In this document: piece after piece, positions 2,579-45,886 of the stretch
Numbering within the stretch: the first letter of the stretch is position 1
Layout: every line of letters begins with the position of its first letter
DNA from: Verrucomicrobiota bacterium
Lineage (GTDB): Bacteria; Verrucomicrobiota; Verrucomicrobiia; Verrucomicrobiales; DEV007
Direction of reading: 5' to 3'
NCBI GenBank assembly: GCA_020630975.1
Contig: JAHDID010000047.1
Span: 1 to 45,886, forward strand
DNA length: 45,886 nt
The notes under the pieces: model-generated
The model's database searches: none
Told to the model about the DNA's origin: nothing
What the model saw: only the letters and a program-made list of their open reading frames with translations
Translations under genes and position numbers: made by a program

Positions 2579-2612
2579 AAAAGGGGCAGTCTGTGGTGGG
2601 CTGCCCCTTTTT
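2579..2612. terminator. Bidirectional intrinsic terminator
   Basis: An 11-bp perfect stem, AAAAGGGGCAG (2579-2589) pairing with CTGCCCCTTTT (2601-2611), encloses an 11-nt loop. It ends in a T-run on the plus strand and, because of the A-run on the left arm, also on the minus strand. It lies between the convergent ends of the TPR gene (2479) and the lipoprotein gene (2639), where it can stop transcription from both sides. Confidence 0.88.
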
Positions 2613-2638
2613 CAGAGACTGGTATCAGTGTACACGGG

Positions 2639-26083: not shown

Positions 26084-26084
26084 G

Positions 26085-26104
26085 ACTCTGCATCGAAGCA
26101 GAGT
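26085..26104 (-). promoter_or_regulatory. Hairpin just upstream of the GTG start of the sulfatase
   Basis: ACTCTGC (26085-26091) and GCAGAGT (26098-26104) pair perfectly across a 6-nt loop, filling most of the 25-bp gap to the upstream gene and ending one base from the GTG start. No Shine-Dalgarno sequence is visible there. It could limit ribosome access or act as a weak processing signal; both are inferences. Confidence 0.45.
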
Positions 26105-26108
26105 TTAG

Positions 26109-26819: not shown

Positions 26820-26913
26820 CACTGAGGCGGGAAGAGGTCAGGACCCGTATTTTCATATCTTTTATAGCAGCTATTGTCAATCCTGCTTTAGGAGAGGTAG
26901 GCTGTGAGAGCCG

Positions 26914-28689: not shown

Positions 28690-31600
28690 ATGAAAAAACG
28701 CCGAAATCGCTCGAAAATCGTCGATCTATTCACACGGAAAGGTCGAAAGGATGAGGAACGTCGCCAGATGCAGGCGGAGCAGTTGGAGGAGAGAGTGCTC
28801 TTATCCGCGACTCCCGTGGCAGTCGAGCCGGTCGAGGCCGAGGCTGAGCCGCCAGCCGCGCAAGAGCAGGATAGTAGTAACAGAGAGTCTTCTGTATCTC
28901 GCGAGGAGTTGGAAGCAATCGTGGATGCGGCGATCGAGCGCTGGAAAGAGTCCGGCATCAGCGATGAGCAGCTGCAGGCACTAGAGGAGGCGCAGTATGT
29001 GTTTGCCGATCTATCCGTGCTGCATGTGGCCCAGGCCGAAGGCCAGCTGGTAACGCTGGATGTGGATGCCAATGGACGTGGCTGGTATGTCGATGAAACT
29101 CCAGAGGACGATGCCGAATTTTCTAAGATCGAGGAAGTCCTGCGTGCCGAGGGCGATGAAGCTCGGGGCATGGATCTGCTCTCGGTGATCATGCACGAGC
29201 AGGGGCACATGCTCGGTCTGGCTGATGACTATGATCAAGCTCAGGAGGGCAATGTGATGTACGGTGGCTTTGAGGCGGGCTCCCGACGTGTCATCCTAGA
29301 CGCACAGGCACAGGGCGCAGAGCTGCTGAGTCTGGCAGGTGTGCACTATGCCACTCACACCGTGGATACCACGGCTGACGTGGTAGATGCTGGCGATGGG
29401 CTGCTGAGTCTGCGCGAGGCGATCATCGCAGTGAATGCCTCTAGCGATACCACGCACACGATCATCCTGCAGAGTGGTGCGACTTATAATCTGACGATCA
29501 CGCCCAATGCTGGTGTGAGTGAGGCTGAGAAAGGCGATCTAGATATCGAAGTGCAGGCAGGCGAGAAGCTGACGATCGTCGGTAACGGTGCCACGGTGGA
29601 TGCGGATTTTGATCTGATCTCGCGAAACGACCGTGTGTTTGAGATCGTCGACGATGGTGAGGTGGAATTTCAGAATCTGACAATCACTGGTGGTAATGCC
29701 GTGCAGGGTGCGGGAGTGCGAGTGTCGAATGGTAATGCCACTACAACTTTCACCAATGTCACAATAGAGGGCAACTATGCGACCGGCACCGATGGCAATG
29801 CTCACGGTGGTGGTGCAGCGGATCTATCAGGTACCGTGGTGTTCACCGATTCTACGATTCAAAATAATGCCGCCAATCAAGATGGCGGAGGTCTGATGAT
29901 TCGTGGTGGCAATGTCTCGTTTATCAATACCGACGTGATCAATAACAATGCCGGATTTGATTCGGCAGGGCCAGCAGGCAGTCAGATCCGTTCTGGCGCT
30001 ACCGGTGGTGGTATCTGGTTGCGCGGCGGGGGAACTGCGACCTTCGATGCCGATAGTAGTCTGTCTGACAACACGTCTGGTGGGGCTGGAGGTGGTATCC
30101 ATATCACAGGCGAAGGGACTAGCTTGTATATGGATGGGACCGCGATGAACAATAACGAATCGCTCAACAGCGGTGGCGGGGCAATCCGGTTTGACGGGAA
30201 TCAACTGACCTCGGTCGTGTCGCTATCGAACATGACTATCTCAGGTAACACTGCTACCGGCAACGGCGGCGTCATCCATACCGATGAGTACAATACCATC
30301 AATATCACTAACACGACTTTGTCGAACAATACAGCAAGCTCGAGTGGTGGGGCCATCTATGTCGGAGGTAGTGTGAATAATGTGATGACACTAGATGGTG
30401 TCGTTTTTGATGGCAATGTCGCTACGACGGCTAGTGGTGGTGGATTTCGAAGCGAAGCTCAGGTCATCTTTCGTAATGATGTGACCTTTACCAACAATGT
30501 GGCTGGAACTGAGGATGATGGGGGTGGGGGCTTTTACCTAACCGGCTCAAATGCGAGGGTATCACAAGACCCCGCAGCGGTCGGTAATATCACAATCACG
30601 GGGAATACAGGTGAGCGTGGTGGTGGCTTCCGTAACAATCTAGGCACGATCGATCTAGCAAATGTCACGCTGTCGAACAATATCTCGACCTTCGCTGATA
30701 GCAATGGCGATGGTCGCTTCGGTAATGGTGATACTGCTGGAGGTGGTGGATTCCACAGCGAAGGTCACGGTGCTTCGGTGACGCTGACCAATAGTATTAT
30801 CGATGGCAACACGACAGGTCGTTATGGTGGAGGTTTCCACAATCGCAACGGGGCGGTGACGCTTCAGGATACCTTTGTGACCAATAACATTTCTACCGGA
30901 ACGGGTGGAGGTGGCTTCCGCCAGACCGGCGACACTAGTTCGGTTACCTGGGATAACTCCGGCCTCACGGCAGCGCAGCAGGCGGTCAGTTTCACCGGGA
31001 ATGAGGCGACCATCCAGCACGGTGGTGGCTTTCGCAATACTAGCGGCGATGTGACACTGACTAGTATCGACATCCAGGGGAACAAGACAGGGCCAGAGGG
31101 CACCAGTAATAACAATGTAGGTGGTGGATTCTACCAGGATGGTGATGCGTCTAATACTACGCTGACCGATGTGAATATATACGAGAATACCGCTGGTGGT
31201 GATGGTGGTGGATTCTATGCCACGGATGGAACAGTGACGATCGACCGCACGAGCACGGGGGCGATCGAGATACGAGATAACAAGATCGAGGGTGTCGGTA
31301 CGACCACTCGAAATGGAGCAGGTTTTTATCTAGGCGGCGAGGCGCAGCTGACAATCGGCGGTATCGGTCATGCGATGATCACCGACAATGTGCATGAACT
31401 AGGTGGCGGCGGTGGTGCACGGGTCGGAGCTAACTCGACTGCTACCATCGTAGGTACAGCGACTAATCAGGGGGAGATATCGGGTAATACGGTGACGAAT
31501 AACGGCGGTGGTCTCCAAATCACCGGGCAAGCTACGGTGAATCTCGACTACATCGACATCAAGAATAACTCTACGGGTCTCGATGGAGGTGGTGTCTACC

Positions 31601-34600
31601 TAGAAGCCTCTCCCTCGAATTTCACAATGACCAATGGTACCATCGATGGTAACACTGCGGGATCAGAGGGGGGCGGTATCTACACATCTGGGCAGGTCTC
31701 GCTGACGGAGGTAGACATCAATGCCAACACTACAACTGGGCAGAGTGGAGCTGGTATGTTTATCAATGATGGATCATTCGTGACTATCGCAGACTCGAAT
31801 ATTACCAATAATTTATCTGACGAAGGTGGTGGTGGTATCTGGAACGAAGGTGATCTTACCCTTACCTCATCCGACGGATCGCACCATATCTCGGGCAATG
31901 TCGCTGGAGGAACCGACAATAATGTGGATGGCTACTACGATGGTGGCGGTCTTCGTACTACTGGTACATCAGTAACGACGATCACGGACTATGATATTCG
32001 AGATAATACCGCCTCCCAGCACGGTGGTGGAGCTATGTTCGAAGCCGGTGAGGTGTCGCTGACAGGAGTTGACTTTACGGGAAATCTCGCTCTTGAGGAG
32101 GGCGGCGGTTTCCGCTCGGGTGAGCAGGCGAGAGTGACCATGACCGGTGGCACGGTCGTCAATAACACGGTAGCGGATACGACACCTCGTGATGCCGCGC
32201 AGCTATGGCGCACCCGTGGCGGTGGCGTGGTGGCTCGAGGACAGCTGACGCTAGATAGCGTAGCGATAGAAAACAACGTCGCAGGCGAGGATGGTTCGAT
32301 AGGGCGTCAAGGTGGTGGTTTGTTTGTCGAGGGGCAGGGGGCCAGCGTGCTAATCAAAGATAGCTCCATCAAAGATAACCGCGTGTCAGGGAGTGGGGCT
32401 GGATTCTATCAAAATGGCGGTGCCGTCACCCTTGACAATACCGATGTCGATAGCAATGAAGTGACTTTAGGGCGCGGCCAGGCAGGAGGATTCCTGGTGA
32501 CCGGCGCAGGGCAGACGGCCTTGATCAATGGCTCCGATGTGATCAATAATAGGTCTACCTACCATGCTGGTGGTGTGCAGGTCTCTGGCGGTAGTACGCT
32601 CACGGCTACAGGTACGCTGATTACGGGTAACCAAGCGGTTCATTTAGCAAGCGATACCGATACCAATGCGGTAGGCGGCGGTATGTATGTATCCGATAAT
32701 GGAACGACTGTGACGCTTAATAGTGTGACGATCGATAACAATACCGCTGAGGGCCGTGGTGGTGGTGTGTATACCAGTGGGGAAAATAATTTTTCTGCGA
32801 CTGATAGTTCGATATCGAATAATGTGATTCAAGGGACATCTGCGGCTGGCAGTACGATCAATCGAGGTGCTGGTGGTATTTGGTTGAGTGGCAATAGCGT
32901 TGCTACCTTGGATAATGTCAATGTTGACAATAACACAGCTACCAACAACGAAGGGGGTGGCGGTGTCTATGTCGAAGACCGCACTGTTTTGACGATGACC
33001 GGTGGTTCGGTTTCGAATAACACGGCTGCAGGTGGCGATGGTGGTGGTGTACGCGTCGTCGATAATGCTAATGCTACTTTCGACGGTGTCACGATATCAG
33101 GTAATGATGCTTCCAATAACCGTGGTGGTGGTGTGTCGGTGCGCAATAATGCAGTGGCTAACATCACCAATGGAACGGTAATCAGTAATAACACCGCTAG
33201 GCAAGGTGGTGGAGGTGTGAATGTCTGGGATGCGAATGCCTCAATGGTTGTGACAGATTCTACGATTACTGGGAATACTGCCACGAATAATCATGGAGGT
33301 GGCGCATGGGTGAGGGATGGTTATTTGGAATTACAGAATTCGACTGTGTCTCTGAATGAGACTCAGGGCACTGATAATAACAATCGTGTCGGCGGTGGTA
33401 TTTTCTTTCAAGTCAGCGCTACTGGATTGATTAATGACAGTACGATCACGCAAAATACCTCTTATGGTCGCGGTGGCGGTATTTATGTGGATAACTCTCA
33501 GGTAGAGATCAATCGAAGTTCAATCACCTCTAACCAAACGGATGCAAACGCAGAAGGGCGTGGCCGAGGTGGTGGACTCTGGGTGAGCAATGCGAACTCG
33601 GTGGTCGATGTGAACGACTCGCTGATCGCCAATAATACGTCTGTCGGCCATGGTGGCGGTATCTGGCACGACCGTGGTACGCTGAATATTACCAACTCTA
33701 CCCTGAGCGGCAATATCGCTGGTCAGGATAAGGATGGTAACTTAATCAATAACCGCGATGGCGGTGCCATATGGGCGCAGAATAGTGATGCTATTCTCAA
33801 TATCAATCATTCGACAATTGCTGATAACTCATCGACCCGGAATGGCGGCGGTATTCGCAATAACGCGGCTGTAGTGACGATTACCAATTCAATTATTGCT
33901 GATAACCTTCGAAATATCGACGTCACACCCACGACTGGGAATGCCGATGTGTTTGGTAATCACAATGTCGAGGGTGTATCAATCATCGAGAATCAGGAGC
34001 GGGCTGCAGGCGGCGCTGGCACGGTGCTGAACGTCGATGCGGGACTCGGTGCTCTCGCCGATAATGGCGGTCCGACACTGACTCACGCCATCGACGATAC
34101 GAGTGCAGCCTACGATGCGGCTGCGGGGTCTAATCTTCTCAGTGACCAGAGAGGCCAGGCGCGTGCACAGGGGGCTGGCGCTGATATTGGTGCATTTGAG
34201 GTGACAGATCTCTTGCCTGTCATCGATACCTTTACGCTACCGACAGGCACTGCCGCTGGCCAGACGACAGCTACGGTGGCAGCGACTGCCTCAGGCGGCG
34301 ACGGGACCTTGGTTTACACCTGGGATATCACCGATCCTGTGGGAACGGTAATCACACTGTCGGGAGCCAATCCAACCCTGCCAGCCCTGATGGTCGGCCA
34401 GTACGCCGTGACTCTACGGGTGAGTGATGATGATGGCGATACTGCCATCCAGACTGGTGAGTTTGTGGTTCGTGACTCTACGGTGAATACCCTAGAGGAG
34501 TTGAGGAATTCCATTGTGGTAGCCAATACCGACTCGTCTACTGAGGATATTACGATCACCGTGTCGGCAGGCACTTACGCTTTTGGCTCAGCGACAGATC

Positions 34601-37600
34601 ACTCGAATGGCAATGGTTGTGATGCGGACGATGGAGTCGGTTCGGCAGATACCACAACTGGCGATTTGGATTTCACCCGCCAGAGCGGTCGTATCATCAT
34701 CGAAGGTGCGACCAGTAATGCTGCAGATACGGTAATCGATGCCGAGGATATCGACCGTATTCTACAGGTTCACAAAGGTGCTCAGGTGGTGTTGCGAAAT
34801 ATCACTCTGACGGATGGTACCTCTTGCGCGAATGACCGCCATGGCGGTGCGATCCGCAACAACGGCGACCTGCGCCTAGAAAATGTCATCATAACCGACA
34901 ATGAGACATTCGGCTACACCACCAACTCCAATGATGATGGTGGTGCGATCTTCATGGACGAGGGTAGTACGCTGACCATGATCGGCGGCGAGATCACTAA
35001 CAACCGTGCTGAGCGTGATGGTGGTGCGATTTCCGCAGAAACGGGAGCGACCATATCGTTAACCGATGTGACCATCGAAGATAATGACTCGGGTAGACGT
35101 GGTGGTGCGATCTATGCTCGGACTGCAGATTTATCAGTCGACGGTGGCGTCATCGCAAATAACACGGCGGGTGAGAGTGCTGGTGGTATTTGGATGCTCG
35201 ATGGGGGTAGCGCAGTATTCAATAATTCGGCGATCTCAGGGAATGATGCGGCGAACGGAGCTGGTGGCGGTCTGCGCGCGAATGGAGCTGCGACGATCAC
35301 TATCAATAACACAGATATCTCTGGTAATACTGCTAACACAGGTGGCGGTATCTATGCTCAAAACACCAATACGGTCGTTAATATTACCGACAGTGATATT
35401 AGCAACAACTCCGCTCGATCGAGTCATGGTGGAGGTTTTTATAACGTAGGTGGTACGGTTAGCCTAAATAATGTCGACATCGAGAATAACGTAACCGGAT
35501 CCAACGGAACGAGTAACGATGATGTAGGTGGCGGATTTTACAACGCAGTCGGTGGTACGGTAACTGCGGTCGATGTGAACCTGCGCGACAATGTGTCATC
35601 TGGCGATGGTGCTGGATTCCGCAACGATGAGGGAACAGTAACGTTCACCGTAGTAAACAATAGCTCCACAGAGATCACCAATAACCGAATCATTTCTTCT
35701 AACACTGGACGAGTTGGAGGAGGTTTTTACAACCGAGGCGGAGAGGTCAGTTTTGATCGCCTTACCCTAGAAGACAATGTTTCGGTAGGAGCGGGTGGCG
35801 GCTTCTACAATAACTATGATGGGACGGTAACTATCTCCACTAGCGGAACGATTGCTAATAATGAAGCCATCAATGGCGCGGGTGGAGGCTTTTACAGCAG
35901 CATGGACGGCGTCGTCGATATGACTGCTGTGCAGATCGATGCCAACACCGCTCGTACTCATGGTGGTGGTTTTGCCAGTTTTAATGAGAGTCAGGTCACG
36001 CTGATCGGTGGCCGAATCTCCGGAAACGAGGCGGAGAATGGTACGGGTGGTGGTTTCCGCTCAGATGGTGTAGCGACGATCACAGACGCAATAGTCGGAA
36101 ATAACACAGTCAACCGCGTAACGGCAACGGATGGTAACAACGCTCGTGGAGGTGGTATTTACGGCACCTCGGTTTACTCGGTGATTACTCTAAACAACAC
36201 TGCGGTACAAAACAACTATGCCGATAACGACGGTGGCGGAGTCTTTCTCTCGAGTGGGGCGACCTTCACATCGACTGGCGGAGATATTTCTTTTAACCTG
36301 ACTGGCGATACGCAGGATGACAACATGGGTGGCGGTATCTTCGCCGAGTCCAATGTCAATCTGACTCTCACAGACCTTGACGTATCTTTTAACACCGCAG
36401 GAGGGCATGCCGGTGGTATCTGGGCGACCAGTACGGATGTGGATCTGACTAATGTTTCGGTCGATAGCAATAGAACCCTAGGGACTACTGCCAGTGGTGG
36501 CGATGGCGACAACCATGGTGGTGGTATGTATCTGACCGGCGAAACAGGGTCGCTCGATCTAGCTGGCGATATCAGCTTCTCAAATAATGAAGCAACTGGC
36601 CACGGTGCAGGTATCTTTGCGTCGAATACTCGGATCACAGCCGCCGCAGGCACCTCGATCGACATTGATAACAACACGATCCAAAGTACTCATGCTGCGG
36701 GTGGAAATATATCGGACTTAGATGGCGGTGGTATTTTTGCGAGTGGACTGACTGTTATTGACTTTTCTCAAGTTGATCACGTAAGCATTGATGGTAATAC
36801 AGCTCTACGCTACGGCGGCGGCGTTTATCTGACCAATCAATCGCAGATGACGATCGGCCAGGCCGGAGGTAGCCCCGCATCGCTACACTCTATCTCTCAG
36901 AATACGACTTCGCTAGGTGGCGGCGGTGTGGCCATGTGGGCTGATACTCAGTTGAGCCTATTCGACACCAGAGTGGATCTAAACCGATCATCCAACACCA
37001 GCAATAATTCAGATGCTTGGGGTGGTGGTATCATGGCGCGTGATCGATCTGTGGTGAATCTAGAGCATGTATCGGTGAATCAAAACTTCGCTGGTCGCGG
37101 AGGCGGCGGTATCCGGGTGGATGGTGAGCTGAATGCAACTCGCGTGCAGATCAACGATAACCGGGCCTTCAATGACGGTGGTGGTGGTATCTATGTGGGC
37201 GAGACCCAAGATATCATGGGTATCGGCAATGGCGGCGTGACACTGGAGAATGTCGAGATAGCACGTAACACAGCCGATGGCTACGGTGGTGGTATAAGGC
37301 TACAGAGAAGTACTCTGGATGCGACTAATGTCACGATCGAATCCAATGTATCATCGGAGTATGGCGGTGGTATCTCGACCCAGGGTAACAATAGTGTTTT
37401 CAATCTAACCAACACGACCATCAGTGGTAACCAGGCTGGCGCTAACCATGGCGGTGGTGGTATCTGGACCGCCGATAACAATAGCGGGGTATTCGGCACT
37501 CTCACTCACGTGACAATCGCGTATAACCAGGCGGGCTATGTCGGAGGTGGTTTGCGACGGAATTCTGGTGATATCACCATTGAGAACTCGATTATCGCTC

Positions 37601-40600
37601 ACAATACCGCCCTAGATAATGGCAATACAGGCAATCCTCAGCACGATCTAGCAGGAACGGTGACTGGTGTGGGTGCTAATTTAACTCTAGATGCTGGGGG
37701 GACCATCAATGGTGGCACTCGCATCACTGGAATTGATCCGGTGCTAGGCGATCTTGCCTACAATAACCCAACCGATGTGGCTGCTACTGACATCTTCTCA
37801 GATGGGATCTATGGCAGGACCCACATGATCGATGCCAATGGCGCAGCGGCCAATGTCGCAGATGCCACTACCAGTACCGGCACCGATCAAAACGGTCTGA
37901 CTCGTCCACAGACAGCTGGCGAGCTCCATGATATAGGCGCGACTGAGAACCAGGCTCCACAAATCGATGGTGCGGGACAGATCATTCTCGATGTGAATCG
38001 CGATCCCAATACCGCTAGCCCTGATCACAGCTCCTTCACCGGTCTGCTGTGGGAGCTAGTCACGCCTCCTGGATCGACTCCTGCGGACGTCGATCCAGAA
38101 GCGGGGGATTTAAATCTCGATGGTAATTACTACGACGTGGACCAGTTGGTTTTCACTATCACCGGTGGACCTACTCTAGCCGCTGGTGGCACGGCCAGTG
38201 GTGCGACTGATGCCGGTGTGATCACGGGGTTTGATCCTGCGACAGGAGCTTTTACCTATACCCCGCCATTGAACTTCACTGGCGATGTGTTTGCACAGTT
38301 TACCTTCACGGTGACAGATGATCCGGGTAATCCGGCTCGAACCGCTACTGCCACTGTCGATATCATCATCACCGAAGGTGCGATACCTCCTAATATTATC
38401 GTGAATAATATTCTCGGTACTGAGGGTACCACGGTGCCGCTGGATATCTCTGTGGCACTAGTCGATGTCGATGGTTCAGAGACTTTCGAGGATATCGGTA
38501 CGGTTCATACCGGTGCTCCAGCCGAGGTAGAGATCGCTGGCATCCCGACCGGTTTCCAGCTTCTCGACGAGTTTGGCAACCCTGTCGGTATTCGTGCGTT
38601 CAATGGTAATTGGTATCTCGATGTCGCTGACCTCGATGGGCTGCAGGTGCAAATCGCGGACGACCCGAAAGGCTCGGAAGAATTTACCGTGACCGTGCGT
38701 GCGGTGAGCCGTGAATCCGTTGACAATTCGACTGCCGAAGCAACAGCGACATTCACAGCTATCGTTACCAATGAGGCACCGACCTATACAAATGTGACGT
38801 TCACTGAGGAAAGTGGCGCTGTGACAACAGTTGGCAATGGAGACGCAATCAACACGCTCGATGAAGGTGAGTCGGTATCGGTGTCTGTTACCTTTACGGA
38901 TCCAGGCTATGACCTGCCGTCTCAGGGCACAGAGGAGACCTTTATTGCTGAGATCGATTGGGGCGATGGCACGATCGAGATCGCTACAATTACTAGGACT
39001 CCGGGATCTGAAGGGGTATTAACGACAGGTACCTTTAGCGGCACCCATGTGTATCCCGACAATGGAACCTATGTGGTGAAGTTTAAAGTGCTCGATGACG
39101 ATGATGGTCTTGGGATCTTCCAGACCGTTATGCAGGTCAATAGTATTGACCCGACTATCACGGCACTGACAGCTAATGGCGCTGATATACCAGGCGGTGC
39201 TACGGTAGCCGATATCGACGAGTCAGGTACTCTGAATCTGACCGGATCGTTCTCAGATCCAGGTTTTGATAATCCTGGTGGTATTATTTCTCAGACAGTC
39301 GAGGACTTCACCATCGTGGTCGACTGGGGCGATGGCATCGTCGAAGAGTTCATAGGCGATTCATTTGTGAGTGAGACACCGGGTTCTGCGGGCGTCCTCA
39401 CCTTTGGTTCTTTCAACAACATCTCTCACCAGTATGCGGATAACAATACCTACACGGTAGAGGTGCGTGTGGTGGATGACGATGGCGCTCGTGGCATCGA
39501 GACATTCGACATCACGGTGAACAATGTGCCGCCTACGGCGACTACGCTAAACGCCGCAGGTGTGAGCCTGCCGACCACATCGATCGCCGATGGCGCTACG
39601 ACTGGTGGTACGGTGTCGATCTCCGAAGGTCAGTCGATCACACTGGACGGTATTGTAGCCGATATCGCGTTTGATCGTACACCGAGCCTATTCGATCATG
39701 TCGAGAATGATCCAGGTCTAGCGACTACTGAGCGAATCGTATCGGTAGAGGTAGATTGGGATATTAATGATGTGAACTTCACCGAGGGATTTGTTTCCGT
39801 AGCAAATGTCACCAACGATGATTCTGTCATTAATTCCACATCCGCTGCCTTCGATGCGATCACTAGTAATGCGTCGATCTACAATGCGCCGGGTATCTAT
39901 CAGGCTCATGTGCGCATCACAGATGACAATGGCGGTGTGACCATCGTTCCATTCCGAGTCGAGGTAGGTGATCTGTCGCTCAGTCAGCTCGATGTGAATG
40001 GTACATCTGTTCTCGGCGGTACCCCTGTGATCTTATCGCCTGGCGAGACGGCCGATATCGACGCCGGTTTCTTTGCTGTGGTGCCAGATGATCTCGACGA
40101 CTTTACCATGACGGTAGCGATCGATATGGGTGGTGGAGTGATCGATACGACCACGATCACCACATCCTCTAGTCCTGGACTGACGACGACCGATGCCGAT
40201 CCCGATGCGGTGAATAATGGTGAGTTCGATGACTTGTTGAAGACTCTTACTACACCGGGCACATATCCCGTAACAGTGACGGTAGAGAATAATGGAGCCT
40301 CTTCGACTCGTACCTTCGATATCATCATCGATGAGCTAGCACTGAATAGCATCACCGCAGAGGGCGCACCGATCCCGGTGGTAGATGACACCGTGCGTAT
40401 CGATACCGGCGAGACTCTGGATGTGAATGCGGTATTTGGTGACTCCGTGGTCGACCTGAGTGTACCTGGAGAGACCACCGTCACGATTGATTGGGGTGAG
40501 GGAGCAGGAGTGGAGACGATTAGTAATCCTGTCTTTACGACTAATACGGTAACAGTCAGCCCATCCGAGATCTACGAGACAGCTGGCACCTACACCGTGA

Positions 40601-43600
40601 CAGTGACCATGACTAATGATAACTTCGATGATCCGGTGGTCGAGACTTTCACCGTAGTCGTGACCGATGTCTTGGCAGATCTGGTAGTAACCACCGGTGG
40701 TGGCGATGGCCTACAGGCGACAGAAGGTGGTACGACCGATACGCTTACCTTTGCTTTGGATAAAGATGCTACTGACGATGTGGTAGTCGTCGTGACACCA
40801 GATGCTCAAGTCGATCTGGGTAATGGTGCCGGAAATGCCGTTACGCTTACCCTCACCGATACCACGGCTCAGTCGTTGACCGTCACTGCAGATGACGACT
40901 TCGTCACAGAGGCGAGTCCTCACCCTGGTATTCTCAGTATCGCCGTCACGAGCGGCAGTCCCACGGATCTATTGATCGATTCGGTTAGCACTGGTAGCCC
41001 GCTGACTGGCTCTATCACCACAGATATCACCGACAACGATGCACCGGGTATCACCGTCATCCAGACCGGTGCTTCGACGGATGTGATCGAGGGTACTACG
41101 AATGATACTTTTACCGTGCAGCTAGATTCGGTGCCTACCGAGACGGTGACTGTGACCATCGCTAACAGCGATCCACACATCAACCTAGGTAGTGGTTTTG
41201 GTGTCGATCACACGGTGGTGTTTGCTGCAAATACTACGGCGATGAATCCGGTAACGGTCAATGTGATCGCTACGGATGATAGCCTGCCTGGCGATCGTGT
41301 CTATGTGCTGAACTACAGCTCTTCATCATCAGATACCAACTATGATGGTGCGGGAGTCCCAGTCACCGTGGATGGAGTGGCGACCACTCAGCAGGATGTC
41401 AATATCATCACGCCGGTGCAGCTGCTGATCACCAATGCCGATCGCAGCCTAGATGTGACCGAGGGTGGCAATACGGATACTTTCGATATCGGTCTATCCA
41501 CATCGCCTCCAGCAGGACAGCCAGTCGAGGTAACATTGATTCCCGATGGCCAGATCGACCTCGGTAATGGGGCCGGTGTACCTCTAGTCATTACACTGAC
41601 AGATGCCAATCCTGTGACCGTCACGACCACTGCTTTTGATGATCTCGTTTTCGAGGGGGATCACACTGGATTGATCACAGTGGCGATCACTAGTGGAGAT
41701 GCGACAGCATTTCTCGTAGATGGAGCTCCACAAGCCGATCCTCTAGGCGGCACACTCACGGCCAACATTACTGACAACGACGTCCCTACCGTCACGGTGA
41801 ATGATGTGACAGTAAATGAAGGCGATGGAACTGCTACCATCACCGTCAATATGGACCGAGCAATCGGCCAGGATCTGTCCATCGATGTGGACTTTGACAA
41901 CGGGACTGGAGACTTTGATGACACGACTCAGACCGTGACGTGGACTGCCGGGCAGACTGGAGACAAAACGTTTACAGTCGCCATCACAGACGACAATATT
42001 TCTGAGCTTACTGAAACCTTTGGTATATCCCTAGCGGTCAATGCCGCAACGCCTCTGAACGGTCTCACTGTGTATACCGATGATACAGCTACCTTGACCA
42101 TCACTGATGACGACACTTCGACATTCTCGATCGCTGACGTAACAGTCGATGAGGGAGCTGGCACAGCGACTTTCTCAGTGACATTGGATAATGCAGTCGA
42201 TACCAATGTGGTAATCGACGTAAGCTATGCCGATGTGACTGCGACCGGTGGTGGAGCAGACTACGACTCGACCTCAGATCAAGTAACCTTCGTGGCTGGA
42301 AGTACCACTACGCAGACTGTGACCGTTGCAATCACCGATGACAACATTGGTGAATTGGCTGAAACATTTACAGCTAGCTTGAGCACCGCAACAGCGCTGG
42401 GTGGGCGTGATGTGGTCGTGAATGACACGGCAACCGGAACAATCACTGATAATGATAATGCATCGGTCAACGTTGCAGACGTGAGCGTCAATGAGGGAGA
42501 TGGCACGGCAACGATCACCGTCAATCTAGATACAGCTCTCGATCAGACTCTGAGTGTCGATGTCAGCTTTGGCGGAGACGGCACTGATTTCGATAACGCC
42601 TCTCAGACCGTTACTTGGAACACTGGCGAAACTGGCGACAAGACTTTCACAGTCGACATCACCGATGATGCACAGGTAGAAGCTCTGATCGAGCAGTTCG
42701 GTATCAGCCTAGCTGTGAATACCGGCACACCACTGAATGGTCGTTCAGTAGATGTCACTGACACGGCCACACTCAGCATCACCGACAATGATCAGACCAA
42801 TGTCACGATCGAAGATGTGTCTGTGTCTGAAGATGGCACGATGATCTTCACCGCTACTTCTTCTGCGGCAGTCGATGGAGGTTTCACTGTTGATGTGAGC
42901 TTTGCCGATGTCACAGCTACCGGTGGTGGCACCGACTACACATCCACCACTCAGACACTTACTTTTACTGGGACAGCTGGTGAGACTCAGCAGTTCACAG
43001 TTCCTCTGAATGACGATGGTATCATCGAAGCAACTGAGACATTCACAGTCAGCCAAGGTAATGTAACAGCCGGAACCGCAGCGGTGGGATCGATCACTGT
43101 AACAGACACTGCAACTGGAACGATCACTGATAATGATAGTGCAACGGTCACCGTAGCAGATGTGAGCGTCAACGAGGGCGACGGTACGGCAACGATAACC
43201 GTCAATCTAGATACAGCACTCGATCAAACCTTGAGCGTTGATGTCAGCTTTGGCGGAGACGGAACTGATTTCGATAACGCCACTCAGACAGTCACCTGGA
43301 ACACCAGTGAGACAGGTGATAAGACATTTACTGTCGATATCACTGACGATGCACAGGTAGAAGCTCTGATCGAGCAGTTCGGTATCAGCTTGGCTGTGAA
43401 TACGGGCACGCCACTGAATGGTCGTTCAGTCGATGTCACCGACACTGCCACACTCAGCATCACCGACAACGATCAGACCAATGTCACGATCGAAGATGTG
43501 TCCGTGTCTGAAGATGGCACGATGACATTCACCGCTACTTCTTCTGCGGCAGTCGATGGTGGGTTTACTGTTGATGTGAGCTTTGCCGATGTCACCGCTA

Positions 43601-45886
43601 CCGGAGGTGGCACCGACTACACATCCACCACCCAGACCCTGACCTTCACTGGCACAGCTGGTGAAGCTCAGCAGTTCACAGTTCCTCTGAATGACGATGG
43701 TATCATCGAAGCGACTGAGACTTTCACAGTCAGCCAAGGTAATGTAACAGCCGGAACCGCAGCGGTTGGCTCCATCACGGTTACCGATACAGCGACCGGA
43801 ACCATCACTGATAATGATAGCGCAACAGTCACCGTTGCAGATGTGAGCGTCAATGAAGGCGACGGTACAGCAACGATCACAGTCAATCTAGATACAGCAA
43901 TCGATCAAAACTTGAGCGTTGATGTCAGCTTTGGCGGAGACGGAACTGATTTCGATAACGCCACTCAGACGGTTACTTGGAATACTAATGAGACTGGCGA
44001 CAAAACCTTCACTGTCAATATCACCGATGATGCACAGGTGGAAGCCCTGATCGAGCAGTTCGGTATCAACCTAGCTGTGAATACGGGCACACCACTGAAT
44101 GGTCGCTCGGTCGATGTTACCGACACAGCCACACTCAGTATCACCGATAACGATCAGACCAATGTCACGATCGAAGATGTGTCCGTCTCCGAAGATGGCA
44201 CGATGACTTTCACTGCTACTTCTTCTGCGGCAGTCGATGGAGGGTTCACCGTTGATGTGAGCTTTGCCGACGTCACCGCTACAGGTGGTGGCACTGACTA
44301 CACATCCACCACTCAGACACTGACCTTTACTGGCACAGCTGGCGAGACTCAGCAGTTCACAGTCCCTCTGAATGACGATGGTATCATCGAAGCCACTGAG
44401 ACTTTCACTGTCAGCCAAGGTAATGTAACAGCTGGAACCGTAGCGGTGGGATCGATTACTGTAACAGACACCGCGACTGGAACCATCACTGATAATGACA
44501 GCGCAACAGTCACTGTGGCTGATGTGAGCATCAATGAAGGCGATGGCACGGCTACGATCACCGTCAATCTAGATACAGCTCTTGATCAAGCATTGAGCGT
44601 AGATGTCAGCTTTGGTGGAGACGGAACCGATTTCGATAAAGCCACTCAAACCGTTACTTGGAATACCAGTGAAACTGGTGACAAGACTTTCACGATCAAT
44701 ATCACCGATGATGCACAGGTGGAAGCTCTGAGCGAGCAGTTCGGTATCAGCCTAGCTGTGAATACGGGCACACCACTGAATGGTCGTTCAGTCGATGTCA
44801 CCGACGCAGCCACACTCAGCATCACGGATAATGATTCGACAGCGGTGACGATTGAGGATATCACCCGAAATGAAGATGGCACGTTCACCTTCACGGCGAC
44901 TAACAGTGTTGCCGTCGAAGGCGGTTTCACGGTCGATGTAAGCTTTGCGGATGTTACAGCGACTGGTAGTGGCACCGACTATACTTCTACGACCCAGACG
45001 CTGACCTTCATCGGAACAGCTGGTGAAACTCAAGAGTTCACCGTACCGGTCGTTGATGACACTTTGGTCGAGGGAACCGAAACCTTCACAATCACCCAAG
45101 GCAATGTGGTTTCCACTGTCGCTCCCGTCGGACAGATCGATGTGACCGATACAGCAACTGGTACGATCCTCGATAATGACGCAGCGATCGTTACGGTCGC
45201 AGACGTGACCGTTAATGAGGGAGATGGCACGGCTACGATCACTGTGGACTTGAGTAATGATCTAGACCAAGCACTGACCATCGATGTGAGTTTCTCTGGA
45301 GATGGCAGTGATTTTGCCAATGCGACTCAACAAGTCACTTGGAATACAGGGGAAACTGGAAGTAAAACATTCACTGTTGCCCTGACAGATGATTTACTAG
45401 TCGAGGCCGCTACCGAGGACTTCCTGATCAGCCTCGGCGTCAGCTCATCCACTCCGCTCAATGGACGCGATGTAACGACGACCGATACCGGAACTCTGAC
45501 AATCGTCGATAATGATACCACTAGTGTCACCATAGAAGACGTGAGCGTGGCAGAAGATGGTACTATGACATTTACAGCCACTTCCAGCCATGCGGTTGAG
45601 GGTGGTTTCACTGTAGATGTGAGCTTCGCCGATGTCACGGCTACTGGTGGCGGAACGGATTACACCTCTATCACACAGACACTGACTTTCACCGGCGCTG
45701 CGGGCGAGACTCAGCAATTCACCGTTCCTCTTAACGACGATAACATTAGTGAAAGCGCAGAAACATTCACTGTGACACAGGGTAATGTGGTAGCTGCTAT
45801 CGTTCCTCTATCAGTGATTAATGTAACGGACACCGCTACCGGCACGATTACCGATAATGACGGTGCCGATGTTACCGTTTCTGACG
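28690..45886 (+). CDS. Giant modular surface protein (5' part; runs off window)
   Basis: One uninterrupted frame from the ATG at 28690 to the window end gives at least 5,732 residues (well over 500 kDa) with no stop; the C-terminus is outside. Order: basic leader and LEERVLLSA (32-40); helical linker; metzincin-like site H169ExxHxxGxxD179 with a Met-turn candidate at M190; CSLREA-like segment (about 225-260); beta-helix array 1 (about 297-1815) ending SDQRGQARAQGAGADIGAFE (about 1818-1837); PKD-like domain (about 1838-1930); beta-helix array 2 (about 1958-3060) ending in a TDQNGLTRP and DIGATE cap; Ig/cadherin- and PKD-like domains (about 3090-3990); Calx-beta domains (about 3998 to end). Composition is Gly/Thr/Asp/Asn-rich with only two Cys found. 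The likely role is a Ca-binding extracellular adhesin or matrix-binding protein. Many short minus-strand frames overlap it and are shadows. Confidence 0.92.
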   Translation, partial: MKKRRNRSKIVDLFTRKGRKDEERRQMQAEQLEERVLLSATPVAVEPVEAEAEPPAAQEQDSSNRESSVSREELEAIVDAAIERWKESGISDEQLQALEEAQYVFADLSVLHVAQAEGQLVTLDVDANGRGWYVDETPEDDAEFSKIEEVLRAEGDEARGMDLLSVIMHEQGHMLGLADDYDQAQEGNVMYGGFEAGSRRVILDAQAQGAELLSLAGVHYATHTVDTTADVVDAGDGLLSLREAIIAVNASSDTTHTIILQSGATYNLTITPNAGVSEAEKGDLDIEVQAGEKLTIVGNGATVDADFDLISRNDRVFEIVDDGEVEFQNLTITGGNAVQGAGVRVSNGNATTTFTNVTIEGNYATGTDGNAHGGGAADLSGTVVFTDSTIQNNAANQDGGGLMIRGGNVSFINTDVINNNAGFDSAGPAGSQIRSGATGGGIWLRGGGTATFDADSSLSDNTSGGAGGGIHITGEGTSLYMDGTAMNNNESLNSGGGAIRFDGNQLTSVVSLSNMTISGNTATGNGGVIHTDEYNTINITNTTLSNNTASSSGGAIYVGGSVNNVMTLDGVVFDGNVATTASGGGFRSEAQVIFRNDVTFTNNVAGTEDDGGGGFYLTGSNARVSQDPAAVGNITITGNTGERGGGFRNNLGTIDLANVTLSNNISTFADSNGDGRFGNGDTAGGGGFHSEGHGASVTLTNSIIDGNTTGRYGGGFHNRNGAVTLQDTFVTNNISTGTGGGGFRQTGDTSSVTWDNSGLTAAQQAVSFTGNEATIQHGGGFRNTSGDVTLTSIDIQGNKTGPEGTSNNNVGGGFYQDGDASNTTLTDVNIYENTAGGDGGGFYATDGTVTIDRTSTGAIEIRDNKIEGVGTTTRNGAGFYLGGEAQLTIGGIGHAMITDNVHELGGGGGARVGANSTATIVGTATNQGEISGNTVTNNGGGLQITGQATVNLDYIDIKNNSTGLDGGGVYLEASPSNFTMTNGTIDGNTAGSEGGGIYTSGQVSLTEVDINANTTTGQSGAGMFINDGSFVTIADSNITNNLSDEGGGGIWNEGDLTLTSSDGSHHISGNVAGGTDNNVDGYYDGGGLRTTGTSVTTITDYDIRDNTASQHGGGAMFEAGEVSLTGVDFTGNLALEEGGGFRSGEQARVTMTGGTVVNNTVADTTPRDAAQLWRTRGGGVVARGQLTLDSVAIENNVAGEDGSIGRQGGGLFVEGQGASVLIKDSSIKDNRVSGSGAGFYQNGGAVTLDNTDVDSNEVTLGRGQAGGFLVTGAGQTALINGSDVINNRSTYHAGGVQVSGGSTLTATGTLITGNQAVHLASDTDTNAVGGGMYVSDNGTTVTLNSVTIDNNTAEGRGGGVYTSGENNFSATDSSISNNVIQGTSAAGSTINRGAGGIWLSGNSVATLDNVNVDNNTATNNEGGGGVYVEDRTVLTMTGGSVSNNTAAGGDGGGVRVVDNANATFDGVTISGNDASNNRGGGVSVRNNAVANITNGTVISNNTARQGGGGVNVWDANASMVVTDSTITGNTATNNHGGGAWVRDGYLELQNSTVSLNETQGTDNNNRVGGGIFFQVSATGLINDSTITQNTSYGRGGGIYVDNSQVEINRSSITSNQTDANAEGRGRGGGLWVSNANSVVDVNDSLIANNTSVGHGGGIWHDRGTLNITNSTLSGNIAGQDKDGNLINNRDGGAIWAQNSDAILNINHSTIADNSSTRNGGGIRNNAAVVTITNSIIADNLRNIDVTPTTGNADVFGNHNVEGVSIIENQERAAGGAGTVLNVDAGLGALADNGGPTLTHAIDDTSAAYDAAAGSNLLSDQRGQARAQGAGADIGAFEVTDLLPVIDTFTLPTGTAAGQTTATVAATASGGDGTLVYTWDITDPVGTVITLSGANPTLPALMVGQYAVTLRVSDDDGDTAIQTGEFVVRDSTVNTLEELRNSIVVANTDSSTEDITITVSAGTYAFGSATDHSNGNGCDADDGVGSADTTTGDLDFTRQSGRIIIEGATSNAADTVIDAEDIDRILQVHKGAQVVLRNITLTDGTSCANDRHGGAIRNNGDLRLENVIITDNETFGYTTNSNDDGGAIFMDEGSTLTMIGGEITNNRAERDGGAISAETGATISLTDVTIEDNDSGRRGGAIYARTADLSVDGGVIANNTAGESAGGIWMLDGGSAVFNNSAISGNDAANGAGGGLRANGAATITINNTDISGNTANTGGGIYAQNTNTVVNITDSDISNNSARSSHGGGFYNVGGTVSLNNVDIENNVTGSNGTSNDDVGGGFYNAVGGTVTAVDVNLRDNVSSGDGAGFRNDEGTVTFTVVNNSSTEITNNRIISSNTGRVGGGFYNRGGEVSFDRLTLEDNVSVGAGGGFYNNYDGTVTISTSGTIANNEAINGAGGGFYSSMDGVVDMTAVQIDANTARTHGGGFASFNESQVTLIGGRISGNEAENGTGGGFRSDGVATITDAIVGNNTVNRVTATDGNNARGGGIYGTSVYSVITLNNTAVQNNYADNDGGGVFLSSGATFTSTGGDISFNLTGDTQDDNMGGGIFAESNVNLTLTDLDVSFNTAGGHAGGIWATSTDVDLTNVSVDSNRTLGTTASGGDGDNHGGGMYLTGETGSLDLAGDISFSNNEATGHGAGIFASNTRITAAAGTSIDIDNNTIQSTHAAGGNISDLDGGGIFASGLTVIDFSQVDHVSIDGNTALRYGGGVYLTNQSQMTIGQAGGSPASLHSISQNTTSLGGGGVAMWADTQLSLFDTRVDLNRSSNTSNNSDAWGGGIMARDRSVVNLEHVSVNQNFAGRGGGGIRVDGELNATRVQINDNRAFNDGGGGIYVGETQDIMGIGNGGVTLENVEIARNTADGYGGGIRLQRSTLDATNVTIESNVSSEYGGGISTQGNNSVFNLTNTTISGNQAGANHGGGGIWTADNNSGVFGTLTHVTIAYNQAGYVGGGLRRNSGDITIENSIIAHNTALDNGNTGNPQHDLAGTVTGVGANLTLDAGGTINGGTRITGIDPVLGDLAYNNPTDVAATDIFSDGIYGRTHMIDANGAAANVADATTSTGTDQNGLTRPQTAGELHDIGATENQAPQIDGAGQIILDVNRDPNTASPDHSSFTGLLWELVTPPGSTPADVDPEAGDLNLDGNYYDVDQLVFTITGGPTLAAGGTASGATDAGVITGFDPATGAFTYTPPLNFTGDVFAQFTFTVTDDPGNPARTATATVDIIITEGAIPPNIIVNNILGTEGTTVPLDISVALVDVDGSETFEDIGTVHTGAPAEVEIAGIPTGFQLLDEFGNPVGIRAFNGNWYLDVADLDGLQVQIADDPKGSEEFTVTVRAVSRESVDNSTAEATATFTAIVTNEAPTYTNVTFTEESGAVTTVGNGDAINTLDEGESVSVSVTFTDPGYDLPSQGTEETFIAEIDWGDGTIEIATITRTPGSEGVLTTGTFSGTHVYPDNGTYVVKFKVLDDDDGLGIFQTVMQVNSIDPTITALTANGADIPGGATVADIDESGTLNLTGSFSDPGFDNPGGIISQTVEDFTIVVDWGDGIVEEFIGDSFVSETPGSAGVLTFGSFNNISHQYADNNTYTVEVRVVDDDGARGIETFDITVNNVPPTATTLNAAGVSLPTTSIADGATTGGTVSISEGQSITLDGIVADIAFDRTPSLFDHVENDPGLATTERIVSVEVDWDINDVNFTEGFVSVANVTNDDSVINSTSAAFDAITSNASIYNAPGIYQAHVRITDDNGGVTIVPFRVEVGDLSLSQLDVNGTSVLGGTPVILSPGETADIDAGFFAVVPDDLDDFTMTVAIDMGGGVIDTTTITTSSSPGLTTTDADPDAVNNGEFDDLLKTLTTPGTYPVTVTVENNGASSTRTFDIIIDELALNSITAEGAPIPVVDDTVRIDTGETLDVNAVFGDSVVDLSVPGETTVTIDWGEGAGVETISNPVFTTNTVTVSPSEIYETAGTYTVTVTMTNDNFDDPVVETFTVVVTDVLADLVVTTGGGDGLQATEGGTTDTLTFALDKDATDDVVVVVTPDAQVDLGNGAGNAVTLTLTDTTAQSLTVTADDDFVTEASPHPGILSIAVTSGSPTDLLIDSVSTGSPLTGSITTDITDNDAPGITVIQTGASTDVIEGTTNDTFTVQLDSVPTETVTVTIANSDPHINLGSGFGVDHTVVFAANTTAMNPVTVNVIATDDSLPGDRVYVLNYSSSSSDTNYDGAGVPVTVDGVATTQQDVNIITPVQLLITNADRSLDVTEGGNTDTFDIGLSTSPPAGQPVEVTLIPDGQIDLGNGAGVPLVITLTDANPVTVTTTAFDDLVFEGDHTGLITVAITSGDATAFLVDGAPQADPLGGTLTANITDNDVPTVTVNDVTVNEGDGTATITVNMDRAIGQDLSIDVDFDNGTGDFDDTTQTVTWTAGQTGDKTFTVAITDDNISELTETFGISLAVNAATPLNGLTVYTDDTATLTITDDDTSTFSIADVTVDEGAGTATFSVTLDNAVDTNVVIDVSYADVTATGGGADYDSTSDQVTFVAGSTTTQTVTVAITDDNIGELAETFTASLSTATALGGRDVVVNDTATGTITDNDNASVNVADVSVNEGDGTATITVNLDTALDQTLSVDVSFGGDGTDFDNASQTVTWNTGETGDKTFTVDITDDAQVEALIEQFGISLAVNTGTPLNGRSVDVTDTATLSITDNDQTNVTIEDVSVSEDGTMIFTATSSAAVDGGFTVDVSFADVTATGGGTDYTSTTQTLTFTGTAGETQQFTVPLNDDGIIEATETFTVSQGNVTAGTAAVGSITVTDTATGTITDNDSATVTVADVSVNEGDGTATITVNLDTALDQTLSVDVSFGGDGTDFDNATQTVTWNTSETGDKTFTVDITDDAQVEALIEQFGISLAVNTGTPLNGRSVDVTDTATLSITDNDQTNVTIEDVSVSEDGTMTFTATSSAAVDGGFTVDVSFADVTATGGGTDYTSTTQTLTFTGTAGEAQQFTVPLNDDGIIEATETFTVSQGNVTAGTAAVGSITVTDTATGTITDNDSATVTVADVSVNEGDGTATITVNLDTAIDQNLSVDVSFGGDGTDFDNATQTVTWNTNETGDKTFTVNITDDAQVEALIEQFGINLAVNTGTPLNGRSVDVTDTATLSITDNDQTNVTIEDVSVSEDGTMTFTATSSAAVDGGFTVDVSFADVTATGGGTDYTSTTQTLTFTGTAGETQQFTVPLNDDGIIEATETFTVSQGNVTAGTVAVGSITVTDTATGTITDNDSATVTVADVSINEGDGTATITVNLDTALDQALSVDVSFGGDGTDFDKATQTVTWNTSETGDKTFTINITDDAQVEALSEQFGISLAVNTGTPLNGRSVDVTDAATLSITDNDSTAVTIEDITRNEDGTFTFTATNSVAVEGGFTVDVSFADVTATGSGTDYTSTTQTLTFIGTAGETQEFTVPVVDDTLVEGTETFTITQGNVVSTVAPVGQIDVTDTATGTILDNDAAIVTVADVTVNEGDGTATITVDLSNDLDQALTIDVSFSGDGSDFANATQQVTWNTGETGSKTFTVALTDDLLVEAATEDFLISLGVSSSTPLNGRDVTTTDTGTLTIVDNDTTSVTIEDVSVAEDGTMTFTATSSHAVEGGFTVDVSFADVTATGGGTDYTSITQTLTFTGAAGETQQFTVPLNDDNISESAETFTVTQGNVVAAIVPLSVINVTDTATGTITDNDGADVTVSD
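28783..28809 (+). other. LEPRxLL-like N-terminal signature (LEERVLLSA)
   Basis: Residues 32-40 of the giant protein read LEERVLLSA, after a highly basic leader without a hydrophobic signal core. The motif resembles the LEPRxLL/LEPRVLLSA signature at the N-termini of very large surface proteins in Planctomycetota, Verrucomicrobiota and some others. Here the Pro is replaced by Glu. Its function (export or processing) is not established. Confidence 0.75.
28969..29340 (+). other. Metzincin-like metalloprotease-type segment
   Basis: Residues about 94-217 of the giant protein contain FADLSVLHVAQAEGQLVTLD, GRGWYVDETPEDDAEF, the zinc-site motif HEQGHMLGLAD (H169, E170, H173, third ligand position D179) and NVMYGG with M190 as Met-turn candidate. 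The HExxHxxGxxD form is known from some metzincins. Similar short matrixin-like segments occur near the N-terminus of other LEPRxLL proteins. Whether it is an active protease or acts on the protein itself is unknown. Confidence 0.7.
29365..29470 (+). other. CSLREA-like segment before beta-helix array 1
   Basis: The translated string TVDTTADVVDAGDGLLSLRE followed by AIIAVN has the CSLREA-domain layout (D-x-x-DG, then SLREAI and an A-N element). The usual Cys is replaced by Leu. The domain typically precedes right-handed parallel beta-helices in secreted bacterial proteins, as it does here. Confidence 0.75.
29581..34200 (+). repeat. Right-handed beta-helix array 1 with anchor-Q-like cap
   Basis: About 1,540 residues of degenerate short repeats with Asn-rich turns and GGG[FIV] elements (for example NVTLSNNIS, GGGFYQDGD, NGGGIRNNA), typical of parallel beta-helices of the polymorphic outer-membrane/pectate-lyase type. 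The last units read TITNSIIADN, then DNGGPTLTHAID, and the closing SDQRGQARAQGAGADIGAFE at 34141-34200 matches the end pattern of choice-of-anchor-Q proteins. Confidence 0.85.
34201..34480 (+). other. PKD/Ig-like linker domain
   Basis: Residues about 1838-1930 of the giant protein include TATASGGDGTLVYTWDITDP followed by VGQYAVTLRVSDDDGDTA, the pattern of a PKD-like beta-sandwich. It separates the two beta-helix arrays and probably acts as a spacer. Confidence 0.6.
34481..37950 (+). repeat. Right-handed beta-helix array 2 with anchor-Q-like cap
   Basis: A second beta-helix array of about 1,100 residues, entered through NTLEELRNSIVVANTDSS, a diverged CSLREA-like entry. Repeats again show GGG[FI] and N-N-T elements. 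The end has TIENSIIAHN, then TDQNGLTRPQTAGELHDIGA at about 37891-37950. The only two cysteines found in the giant protein, Cys1977 and Cys2046, flank the first coils of this array. Confidence 0.82.
37951..40679 (+). other. Ig/cadherin-like and PKD-like domain stretch
   Basis: Residues about 3088-3996 of the giant protein. The first part (LVFTITGGPTL, then FDPATGAFTYTPPLNFTGDV and FTFTVTDD) is a cadherin-like/Ig repeat as in large bacterial adhesins. It is followed by PKD-like units with IDWGDGT or VDWGDG and a DNGTY or DNNTY element (about 38950-39480), and by more diverged units. These are likely rigid spacers projecting the array from the surface. Confidence 0.65.
40680..42480 (+). repeat. 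Diverged Calx-beta domains
   Basis: Several Calx-beta-like domains, each ending in an ITDND-type string (for example ITDNDAPGITV, ITDNDVPTVTVNDVTVNEGD), with acidic loops expected to bind calcium. They are less alike than the units that follow. The last diverged pair (41806-42480) is 675 bp long, 6 bp shorter than the later repeat units. Confidence 0.75.
42481..45886 (+). repeat. 681-bp tandem repeat encoding paired Calx-beta domains
   Basis: Five units begin at 42481, 43162, 43843, 44524 and 45205, each exactly 681 bp (227 residues). The next would begin at the last base of the window. Each unit encodes two Calx-beta-type domains: one with VSVNEGDGTATITVNLDTAL, ending SITDNDQT, and one with VSVSEDGTMTFTATSSAAVD, ending GTITDNDSAT. 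The first three units are nearly identical in protein sequence, with mostly silent DNA differences. The fourth and fifth diverge in sequence but keep the length. Acidic loops suggest calcium-stiffened rods. Confidence 0.93.

What the first reader, a model, noticed from the sequence alone, without database searches (positions are those of the whole stretch)
28690..45886. Giant frame of at least 5,732 codons combining protease-like, beta-helix and Calx-beta modules
One open frame covers over a third of the window and continues beyond it. The combination of an LEPRxLL-type leader, a metzincin-like site, two capped beta-helix arrays and a long Calx-beta rod is an unusual architecture for a surface machine, possibly for adhesion or prey/particle contact.
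Basis: partly seen in the sequence, partly recalled or inferred. Interest (0 to 1): 0.7.

Follow-up and report, generated by a model that had tools for sequence, protein, structure and literature searches.

The report
Giant LEPR-leader protein with metzincin head
An uncultured Verrucomicrobiales bacterium carries a real, still incomplete gene for a surface-type protein of more than 5,700 residues, one of a family of giants that pair an N-terminal 'LEPR' leader with a small zinc-protease domain, and the same pairing, with the protease domain near the other end, turns up in giant proteins of unrelated bacteria.

Summary
Window 28690-45885 is one open frame of 5,732 codons running off the contig, under selection as protein. 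It reads: LEPR-xLL leader; HExxHxxGxxD metzincin; two beta-helix arrays capped by choice-of-anchor Q; PKD/Ig-like linker; Calx-beta rod with five 227-residue double-domain repeats. The C-terminus is probably on contig C14 (998 further residues); the join is unproven and some sequence is missing.

It is not a one-off. Its Verrucomicrobiales genome has 17 LEPR-leader giants, 13 with this metzincin directly after the leader. Relatives reach 18,540 residues. In Proteobacteria, Geomonas and Planctomycetota the metzincin mostly lies near the C-terminus: in 18 such genomes, 10 of 13 module-bearing frames of at least 5,000 aa begin with LEPR. Leader and protease thus go together in giants whatever the protease's position; my searches found no paper saying so.

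Best reading: an exported, acidic, calcium-stiffened surface fibre whose leader is matured or released by its own class of metzincin. Export route and proteolysis are inferred. Adhesion or prey contact is plausible but untested. New variant of a known kind.

The parts
28690..45885 (+). Giant open frame, 5,732 codons, open at the 3' contig end
   Evidence: coding selection
28690..28824 (+). Basic N-terminal leader with LEPR-xLL motif (LEERVLLSA at 28783-28809)
   Evidence: NF012209, 21.4 bits against cut-off 17; 16.4 bits
28894..29319 (+). Minimal metzincin module, residues 69-210; zinc motif HEQGHMLGLAD at 29194-29226, Met-turn Met190 at 29257-29259
   Evidence: Pfam M10; HMM of 45 rows including this one, E 7.6e-53; invariant HE.GH.LGL, Met and Arg columns in 19 rows
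29359..34200 (+). Right-handed beta-helix array 1 with C-terminal choice-of-anchor Q cap (DIGAFE at 34183-34200)
   Evidence: start position read by eye
34243..34446 (+). PKD-like domain between the two arrays
   Evidence: Pfam PKD 25 bits, cut-off 23.5
34453..37947 (+). Right-handed beta-helix array 2 with second choice-of-anchor Q cap (DIGATE at 37930-37947)
   Evidence: start position read by eye; second cap placed by motif
37948..40686 (+). PKD/Ig-like linker with DWGDG motifs at residues 3423 and 3545
   Evidence: Pfam PKD_4 below its cut-off; motifs; borders approximate
40687..45885 (+). Calx-beta rod, about 12 domains or more, cut by the contig end
   Evidence: Pfam Calx-beta E 6.4e-95, 12 stretches; start approximate
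42424..45828 (+). Five in-frame copies of a 681-nt (227-residue) double Calx-beta unit; the first three 95-97% identical as protein, the fifth 70-75%

Best explanation
The gene encodes an exported, surface-attached fibre. The LEPR leader marks the protein for an export or retention route that is not classical Sec; the beta-helices and calcium-binding Calx-beta/PKD domains form a long, acidic, cysteine-poor rod; a C-terminal 'GFR/Ig-like' domain over no curated cut-off in Pfam or NCBIfam, seen on the proposed end C14 and on many giants of this genome, forms the far end. The metzincin is an active zinc protease whose main job is to act on LEPR giants themselves, by trimming the leader or releasing the fibre: in cis here, and between the two ends or between molecules in the lineages where it lies near the opposite terminus. 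Shown: translation-like selection, domain order, conserved metal site, leader-protease coupling in giants of several phyla, a recurrent C-terminal domain. Inferred: export, attachment, proteolysis, self-processing, binding function.
For: Coding selection. HE.GH.LGL and the Met are invariant in 19 aligned family members and the third ligand is Asp in 18 of them; it is Asp in all 13 modules of this genome; HE.GH..G is invariant in 45 rows of wider origin. In 74 of 80 loci where my motif found the site, the third-ligand position is Asp or His, as expected of a true ligand. The profile matches 17 solved sequences at E up to 0.01, among them stromelysin 3, karilysin and the snapalysin-type zinc protease 1c7k, over some 30-45 of 146 positions around the metal site. 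Module and leader go together: 13 of 13 module proteins of this genome carry LEPR; in 18 genomes of other lineages, picked for a C-terminal module, 10 of 13 module-bearing frames of at least 5,000 aa carry LEPR at the N-terminus, and 10 of 15 LEPR frames of that size carry the module (my tally). In the 7 measured, the module ends 39-186 residues before the C-terminus. The module tree puts 35 of 36 N-terminal LEPR modules on one side of a supported branch. Giants are acidic, with Lys 0.2-1.3% and 0-6 Cys each.
Against: Four of the 17 LEPR giants of this genome lack the module (two of them are cut at contig edges), as do 5 of 15 LEPR frames of at least 5,000 aa elsewhere, so a cognate protease in every giant is not required. 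27 of 40 module rows are in frames under 5,000 aa without a LEPR hit, so the module also works elsewhere. One of 19 family rows (L029) has Glu at the third-ligand place, and 6 of 80 loci did not show my motif. The 18 genomes were picked because they have the module, which favours finding coupling from the LEPR side. The C-terminal domain profile found only 6 of 11 other giants.
Confidence: 0.4

Rival explanations
1. The metzincin is an effector head that digests proteins of prey, host or particulate matter, and the giant is a tethered digestive or predatory weapon; it does not act on its own leader.
For: Metal site conserved; solved relatives by sequence include secreted proteases; the flank in this window holds two sulfatases, which fits a polymer degrader; 13 diversified paralogues in one genome.
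Against: A single small protease per 2,000-18,000-residue rod, and its repeated coupling to LEPR with position free to change, is not predicted by this reading.
Confidence: 0.28
2. An ordinary giant adhesin of the LapA kind: secreted by a type I system, C-terminus first, with the N-terminal part retained; the protease is an accessory.
For: Two LapB-type ABC genes over the TIGR03375 cut-off, each beside a HlyD gene, in this genome; composition fits; Ca-binding repeats; matches below cut-off to NF045619 (BapA/Bap/LapF) and tandem-95 models just before the C-terminal domain of C14.
Against: LssB-type ABC (E up to 1e-100) in 5 of 7 genomes with the module against 7 of 29 without, or 3 of 7 against 5 of 29 over the curated cut-off; 7 of 18 against 5 of 18 by LEPR over the cut-off. 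Two genomes rated 93 and 94% complete with the module (G012, G015) have none. No HemolysinCabind (RTX) match in the window frame or C14 end and no RTX-like nonapeptide by pattern in either.
Confidence: 0.22
3. Assembly or annotation artefact, or a decayed gene held open by repeats.
For: The frame ends in a repeat array at the contig edge; no overlap joins it to C14.
Against: Third-codon-position bias and dN/dS about 0.03-0.05; complete homologues up to 18,540 aa that stop behind a conserved C-terminal domain.
Confidence: 0.03

Closest known systems
LEPR-XLL giant proteins (NCBIfam NF012209, LEPR-8K), e.g. the ~8,000-aa Vibrio protein mentioned in PMC10868602 (one passage read)
   Same: N-terminal LEPR motif, huge length; the Vibrio protein is described with C-terminal RTX and serralysin domains (serralysins are metzincins, recalled)
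   Different: Here the metzincin follows the leader at the N-terminus, the proposed C-terminus has another domain, and the rod is beta-helix plus Calx-beta
Snapalysin (M7) and matrixin/karilysin (M10) metzincins (MEROPS labels recalled)
   Same: About 130-140 residues, HExxHxxGxx[D/H] and Met-turn; sequence matches to 1c7k, 2xs3, 1hv5 around the metal site
   Different: Fused to giant proteins; own signature W[FY][VI]DxTxxxDxEF upstream of the site
LapA-type giant adhesins with N-terminal retention
   Same: Length, Ca-binding repeats, acidic composition; LapB-type transporters in the genome
   Different: No RTX match; LapG and a retention module were not tested; metzincin built in
Chlamydial Pmp / CSLREA / choice-of-anchor Q beta-helix proteins of PVC bacteria (CSLREA recalled, no call)
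   Same: GGG-type coil repeats (TIGR01376 over its cut-off) and choice-of-anchor Q caps
   Different: No autotransporter barrel found in the proposed C-terminus
PVC giant genes (Omnitrophota, Elusimicrobia, Planctomycetota; PMC12057145 and PMC11573180, passages)
   Same: Giant secreted-type proteins common in this superphylum
   Different: The passages read mention no LEPR leader or metzincin; 'LEPR' does not occur in PMC11573180

Membership tests
LEPR-XLL giant protein | LEPR-xLL motif near the N-terminus over the NF012209 cut-off | tested here: met
   21.4 bits, cut-off 17; 16.4 bits on a 1,200-aa piece
Metzincin (M10/M7-like) | HExxHxxGxx[H/D] plus Met-turn | tested here: met
   Residues 169-179 and Met190; Pfam M10 over cut-off
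Metzincin (M10/M7-like) | Metzincin fold | not tested
Metzincin (M10/M7-like) | Zinc-dependent proteolysis | not testable with these tools
   needs protein
LapA/RTX type I adhesin | RTX nonapeptides near the C-terminus | tested here: not met
   No HemolysinCabind match in the window frame or C14 end, 0 pattern matches; the C14 link is itself inferred
LapA/RTX type I adhesin | Cognate LapB-type transporter in the genome | tested here: inconclusive
   Two present here, but none in G012 and G015, which have the same family
LapA/RTX type I adhesin | N-terminal retention module and LapG site | not tested
   -
Autotransporter / Pmp (type V) | C-terminal Autotransporter barrel | tested here: not met
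   No barrel family in the C14 or L067 C-termini
Two-partner secretion exoprotein | N-terminal TPS (Haemagg_act) domain | tested here: not met
   Not among Pfam matches at E up to 0.01
Rickettsial PKMT (neighbour on C14, not the giant) | Near full-length match to PKMT1/PKMT2 and PKMT_2nd domain | tested here: met
   5dnk E 2.8e-49, 5doo E 2.3e-46; PF21782

The most novel reading that the evidence does not exclude
LEPR leader plus metzincin is a two-part export-and-release system of its own for giant fibres, spread over several phyla: the leader is a non-Sec targeting or retention element and the metzincin, free to sit near either end, cuts it. In some genomes a Rickettsia-type protein lysine methyltransferase encoded beside the giant modifies the fibre as well.
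Probability: 0.2. Interest if true: 0.75.

Novelty: new variant of a known kind. Interest (0 to 1): 0.5.

Why it matters
The LEPR-xLL leader heads some of the longest bacterial proteins and, as far as I know, has no assigned function; only 2 papers of the searched library hold the term LEPR-XLL. A protease domain that travels with it gives a concrete, testable partner, and the change of the protease from near the C-terminus to the N-terminus gives a natural experiment. It would matter for how bacteria export and anchor proteins of 5,000 to 18,000 residues.

Tried and rejected
Continuation of the frame: C14 (reverse) starts in frame with Calx-beta, 65% identical over 605 aa to the last 1,032 residues of the window frame, and ends in the class A C-terminal domain. 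Class A ends also close C158 and the JARGPH and JARGNI giants, whose metzincins group with the window's (92/88, not in the strongest support class); C40 also has a class A end but its metzincin groups elsewhere. C85 was rejected as continuation because it shares an exact 55-base end with C125. C133 (7,275 aa) and C95 (9,610 aa) are also open at contig edges, but end in another domain type by eye; C133's other edge holds a second orphan class A end of 192 aa (HMM E 4.7e-67), so C14 is the best, not the only, candidate. No exact overlap joins C52 to C14, and neither end occurs elsewhere in the assembly within 3 mismatches.

T1SS co-occurrence was tested and is weak. The ABC/HlyD-like/TolC-like set beside two giants on C126 was set aside: both models score below their cut-offs, and by eye its ABC has an intact DCGPTC motif, expected of C39 leader-peptide exporters (recalled; TolC named by eye).

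Lysine methylation by the neighbouring PKMT: of 9 PKMT_2nd rows in 8 of 189 genomes, 2 lie directly beside a giant (C14; C80 of the JARGPH genome), 1 has a module-bearing frame about 9 kb away, and 6 show no giant in the stretches fetched, three of those on contigs of only 25-31 kb. The window frame has only 28 Lys in 5,732 residues. Kept as a lead.

TRF missed the Calx superrepeat (its limit is 500 bases); the repeat finder found it.

Full report
What was checked. The window is the complete contig C52 (45,886 bases) of a 7.14-Mb, 158-contig assembly. A single + strand frame covers 28690-45885, 5,732 codons, with no stop before the contig end. One search shows that it is under selection as protein: in five in-frame copies of a 681-nt unit, differences pile up at third codon positions (6/3/60 between copies 1 and 2) and NG86 dN/dS is about 0.03-0.05 among the first three copies and about 0.11-0.14 between these and the fourth.

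Anatomy. Residues 1-45 are a basic leader with LEERVLLSA. Residues 69-210 are a metzincin-like module (Pfam M10 over its cut-off) with HEQGHMLGLAD and Met190. Two beta-helix arrays follow (about residues 224-1837 and 1922-3086; starts by eye), with choice-of-anchor Q caps (two stretches; motifs). A PKD/Ig-like stretch leads to a Calx-beta rod with 12 significant stretches. The rod has a 227-residue double-domain period. Composition: 540 Asp, 226 Glu, 28 Lys, 142 Arg, 2 Cys; computed pI is at the program's floor of 4.05. No classical hydrophobic signal segment was seen in the first 80 residues.

The missing end. C14, read backwards, begins in frame with a 998-residue frame, Calx-beta first, that closes with a domain of about 190 residues and a stop. 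That class A domain (GFR motif; Ig-like Big_13 match below cut-off; then APAI...G[RQ]R[LM]) is also the C-terminal end of C158, C40 and C144 (9480-24926) and of JARGPH and JARGNI giants, and of an orphan end on C133. A profile of it finds the ends of 6 of 11 other giants of this genome at E 8.4e-8 or better (best decoy 0.019); the ends of both C126 giants, C128, C88 and C129 were not found. The link C52-C14 rests on repeat similarity and on this family pairing; no overlap exists. If right, the protein has at least 6,730 residues plus an unassembled piece.

Whose genome. In 36 genomes, 7 including this one have the N-terminal module. This genome has 18 LEPR rows; one is in a 64-aa frame with a stop, leaving 17 giant frames of 2,159-9,610 aa (three of 4,271, 7,275 and 9,610 aa and the window's being cut at contig edges), about 80,000 residues together (summed), some 3.4% of the genome. 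Thirteen of 17 have the module right after the leader; C133, C95, C144 (9480) and C129 do not. Several lie in tandem (C126, C144; in JARGPH two adjacent giants of 9,780 and 8,736 aa behind the end of a third). JARGNI holds a complete frame of 18,540 aa.

The protease travels with the leader. In 74 of 80 my motif found the metal site: 24 have a LEPR-like motif (loose seven-letter pattern) upstream in the frame, 23 of them near the N-terminus and all 23 in Verrucomicrobiota records, and 40 have the module within 220 residues of a C-terminus. The third-ligand position is Asp or His in all 74; in the 19-row alignment one row, L029, has Glu. To see whether C-terminal modules also belong to LEPR proteins, I took 18 of the genomes with such modules. 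Among 40 module rows, 13 lie in frames of at least 5,000 aa, and 10 of these have LEPR at the start of the same frame (not G200:C58, G198:C101, G207:C264); none of the 27 in shorter frames do. Among 34 LEPR rows, 15 are in frames of at least 5,000 aa, 10 with the module (tally by matching contig, coordinates and frame length). Nine LEPR or module frames were read: seven have LEPR (in L120 IEPRLLLS, a family hit) at the N-terminus and the module ending 39-186 residues from the C-terminus; two (G209, cut at both ends, and G207) have LEPR only. By coordinates the module of the other three paired frames ends roughly 50, 1,140 and 1,310 residues from the C-terminus. The tree of 93 modules puts 35 of 36 N-terminal LEPR modules (with 2 N-terminal ones without LEPR) on one side of a branch with support 98/86; the other side holds all 43 C-terminal modules, 8 undetermined, 4 N-terminal without LEPR and the LEPR row L081. 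It rests on only 144 columns, and many forks are unresolved.

How it may work. Shown: selection, order of domains, conserved site, coupling in giants. Inferred: the leader targets or retains the protein at the envelope without Sec; the rod projects; the metzincin trims the leader or releases the fibre. The coupling with free position is the argument for self-processing over a digestive head, which remains the main rival. LapB-type T1SS genes are present twice here but do not consistently accompany the family (5 of 7 with the module against 7 of 29 without; 3 of 7 against 5 of 29 over the curated cut-off; by LEPR 7 of 18 against 5 of 18), so I do not claim the route.

A neighbour. Nineteen bases behind the C14 giant's stop begins a gene for a near full-length relative of rickettsial protein lysine methyltransferases (E 2.8e-49 to 5dnk), followed by a tryptophan-halogenase-like gene. 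PKMT_2nd occurs once in this genome. The JARGPH genome has a 42% identical copy, divergent to a giant of the family. Most other PKMT rows do not lie near giants in the stretches fetched. That rickettsial enzymes methylate the surface protein OmpB is taken from reference titles shown in PMC10863407 (reference-list passages only).

Literature seen. LEPR-XLL: 2 papers hold the term; one passage of PMC10868602 read, PMC9611531 in the listing only; a variant search found nothing relevant. Giant proteins: passages of PMC12057145 and PMC11573180. Lap-type adhesins: listing only. Snapalysin: listing only. PKMT papers: listing and the passages above. The statement that leader-metzincin coupling is not in print rests in this open-access library only.

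Noticed in passing
L017 (contig C14) 9969-11489 and 8442-9962, - strand: A rickettsial-PKMT-like lysine methyltransferase and a tryptophan-halogenase-like gene directly behind a giant's C-terminus; the PKMT has a relative beside a giant in the JARGPH genome.
   Followed up: partly
L058-L061 (G004 C57, 111561-167183): A complete 18,540-aa LEPR-metzincin frame, followed by a second (open frame 16,801 aa).
   Followed up: partly
L055-L057 and G007 C80 (L065, L066, L069): Tandem runs of giant genes of this family (three in a row on C52, the first seen only by its end; four N-terminal modules on C80).
   Followed up: partly
window 1-289: 2.8 copies of a 102-base tandem repeat (97% matches) at the very start of the contig.
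   Followed up: no
window 24059-28407, - strand: Two sulfatases and, between them, a 237-aa frame without a Pfam match, divergent to the giant.
   Followed up: no
L189/L046 (C126, 4637-10837): ABC exporter with C39-like start (by eye), HlyD-like and TolC-like (by eye) genes next to two tandem giants.
   Followed up: partly
L190 (C40, 167406-179997): TolC-like (by eye), HlyD and LapB-type ABC genes beside another giant-type frame (2,328 aa in the stretch fetched, start not seen).
   Followed up: no
L182-L185 (C133, C95): Two further LEPR giants (7,275 and 9,610 aa, both cut) without the metzincin module in the part seen.
   Followed up: partly
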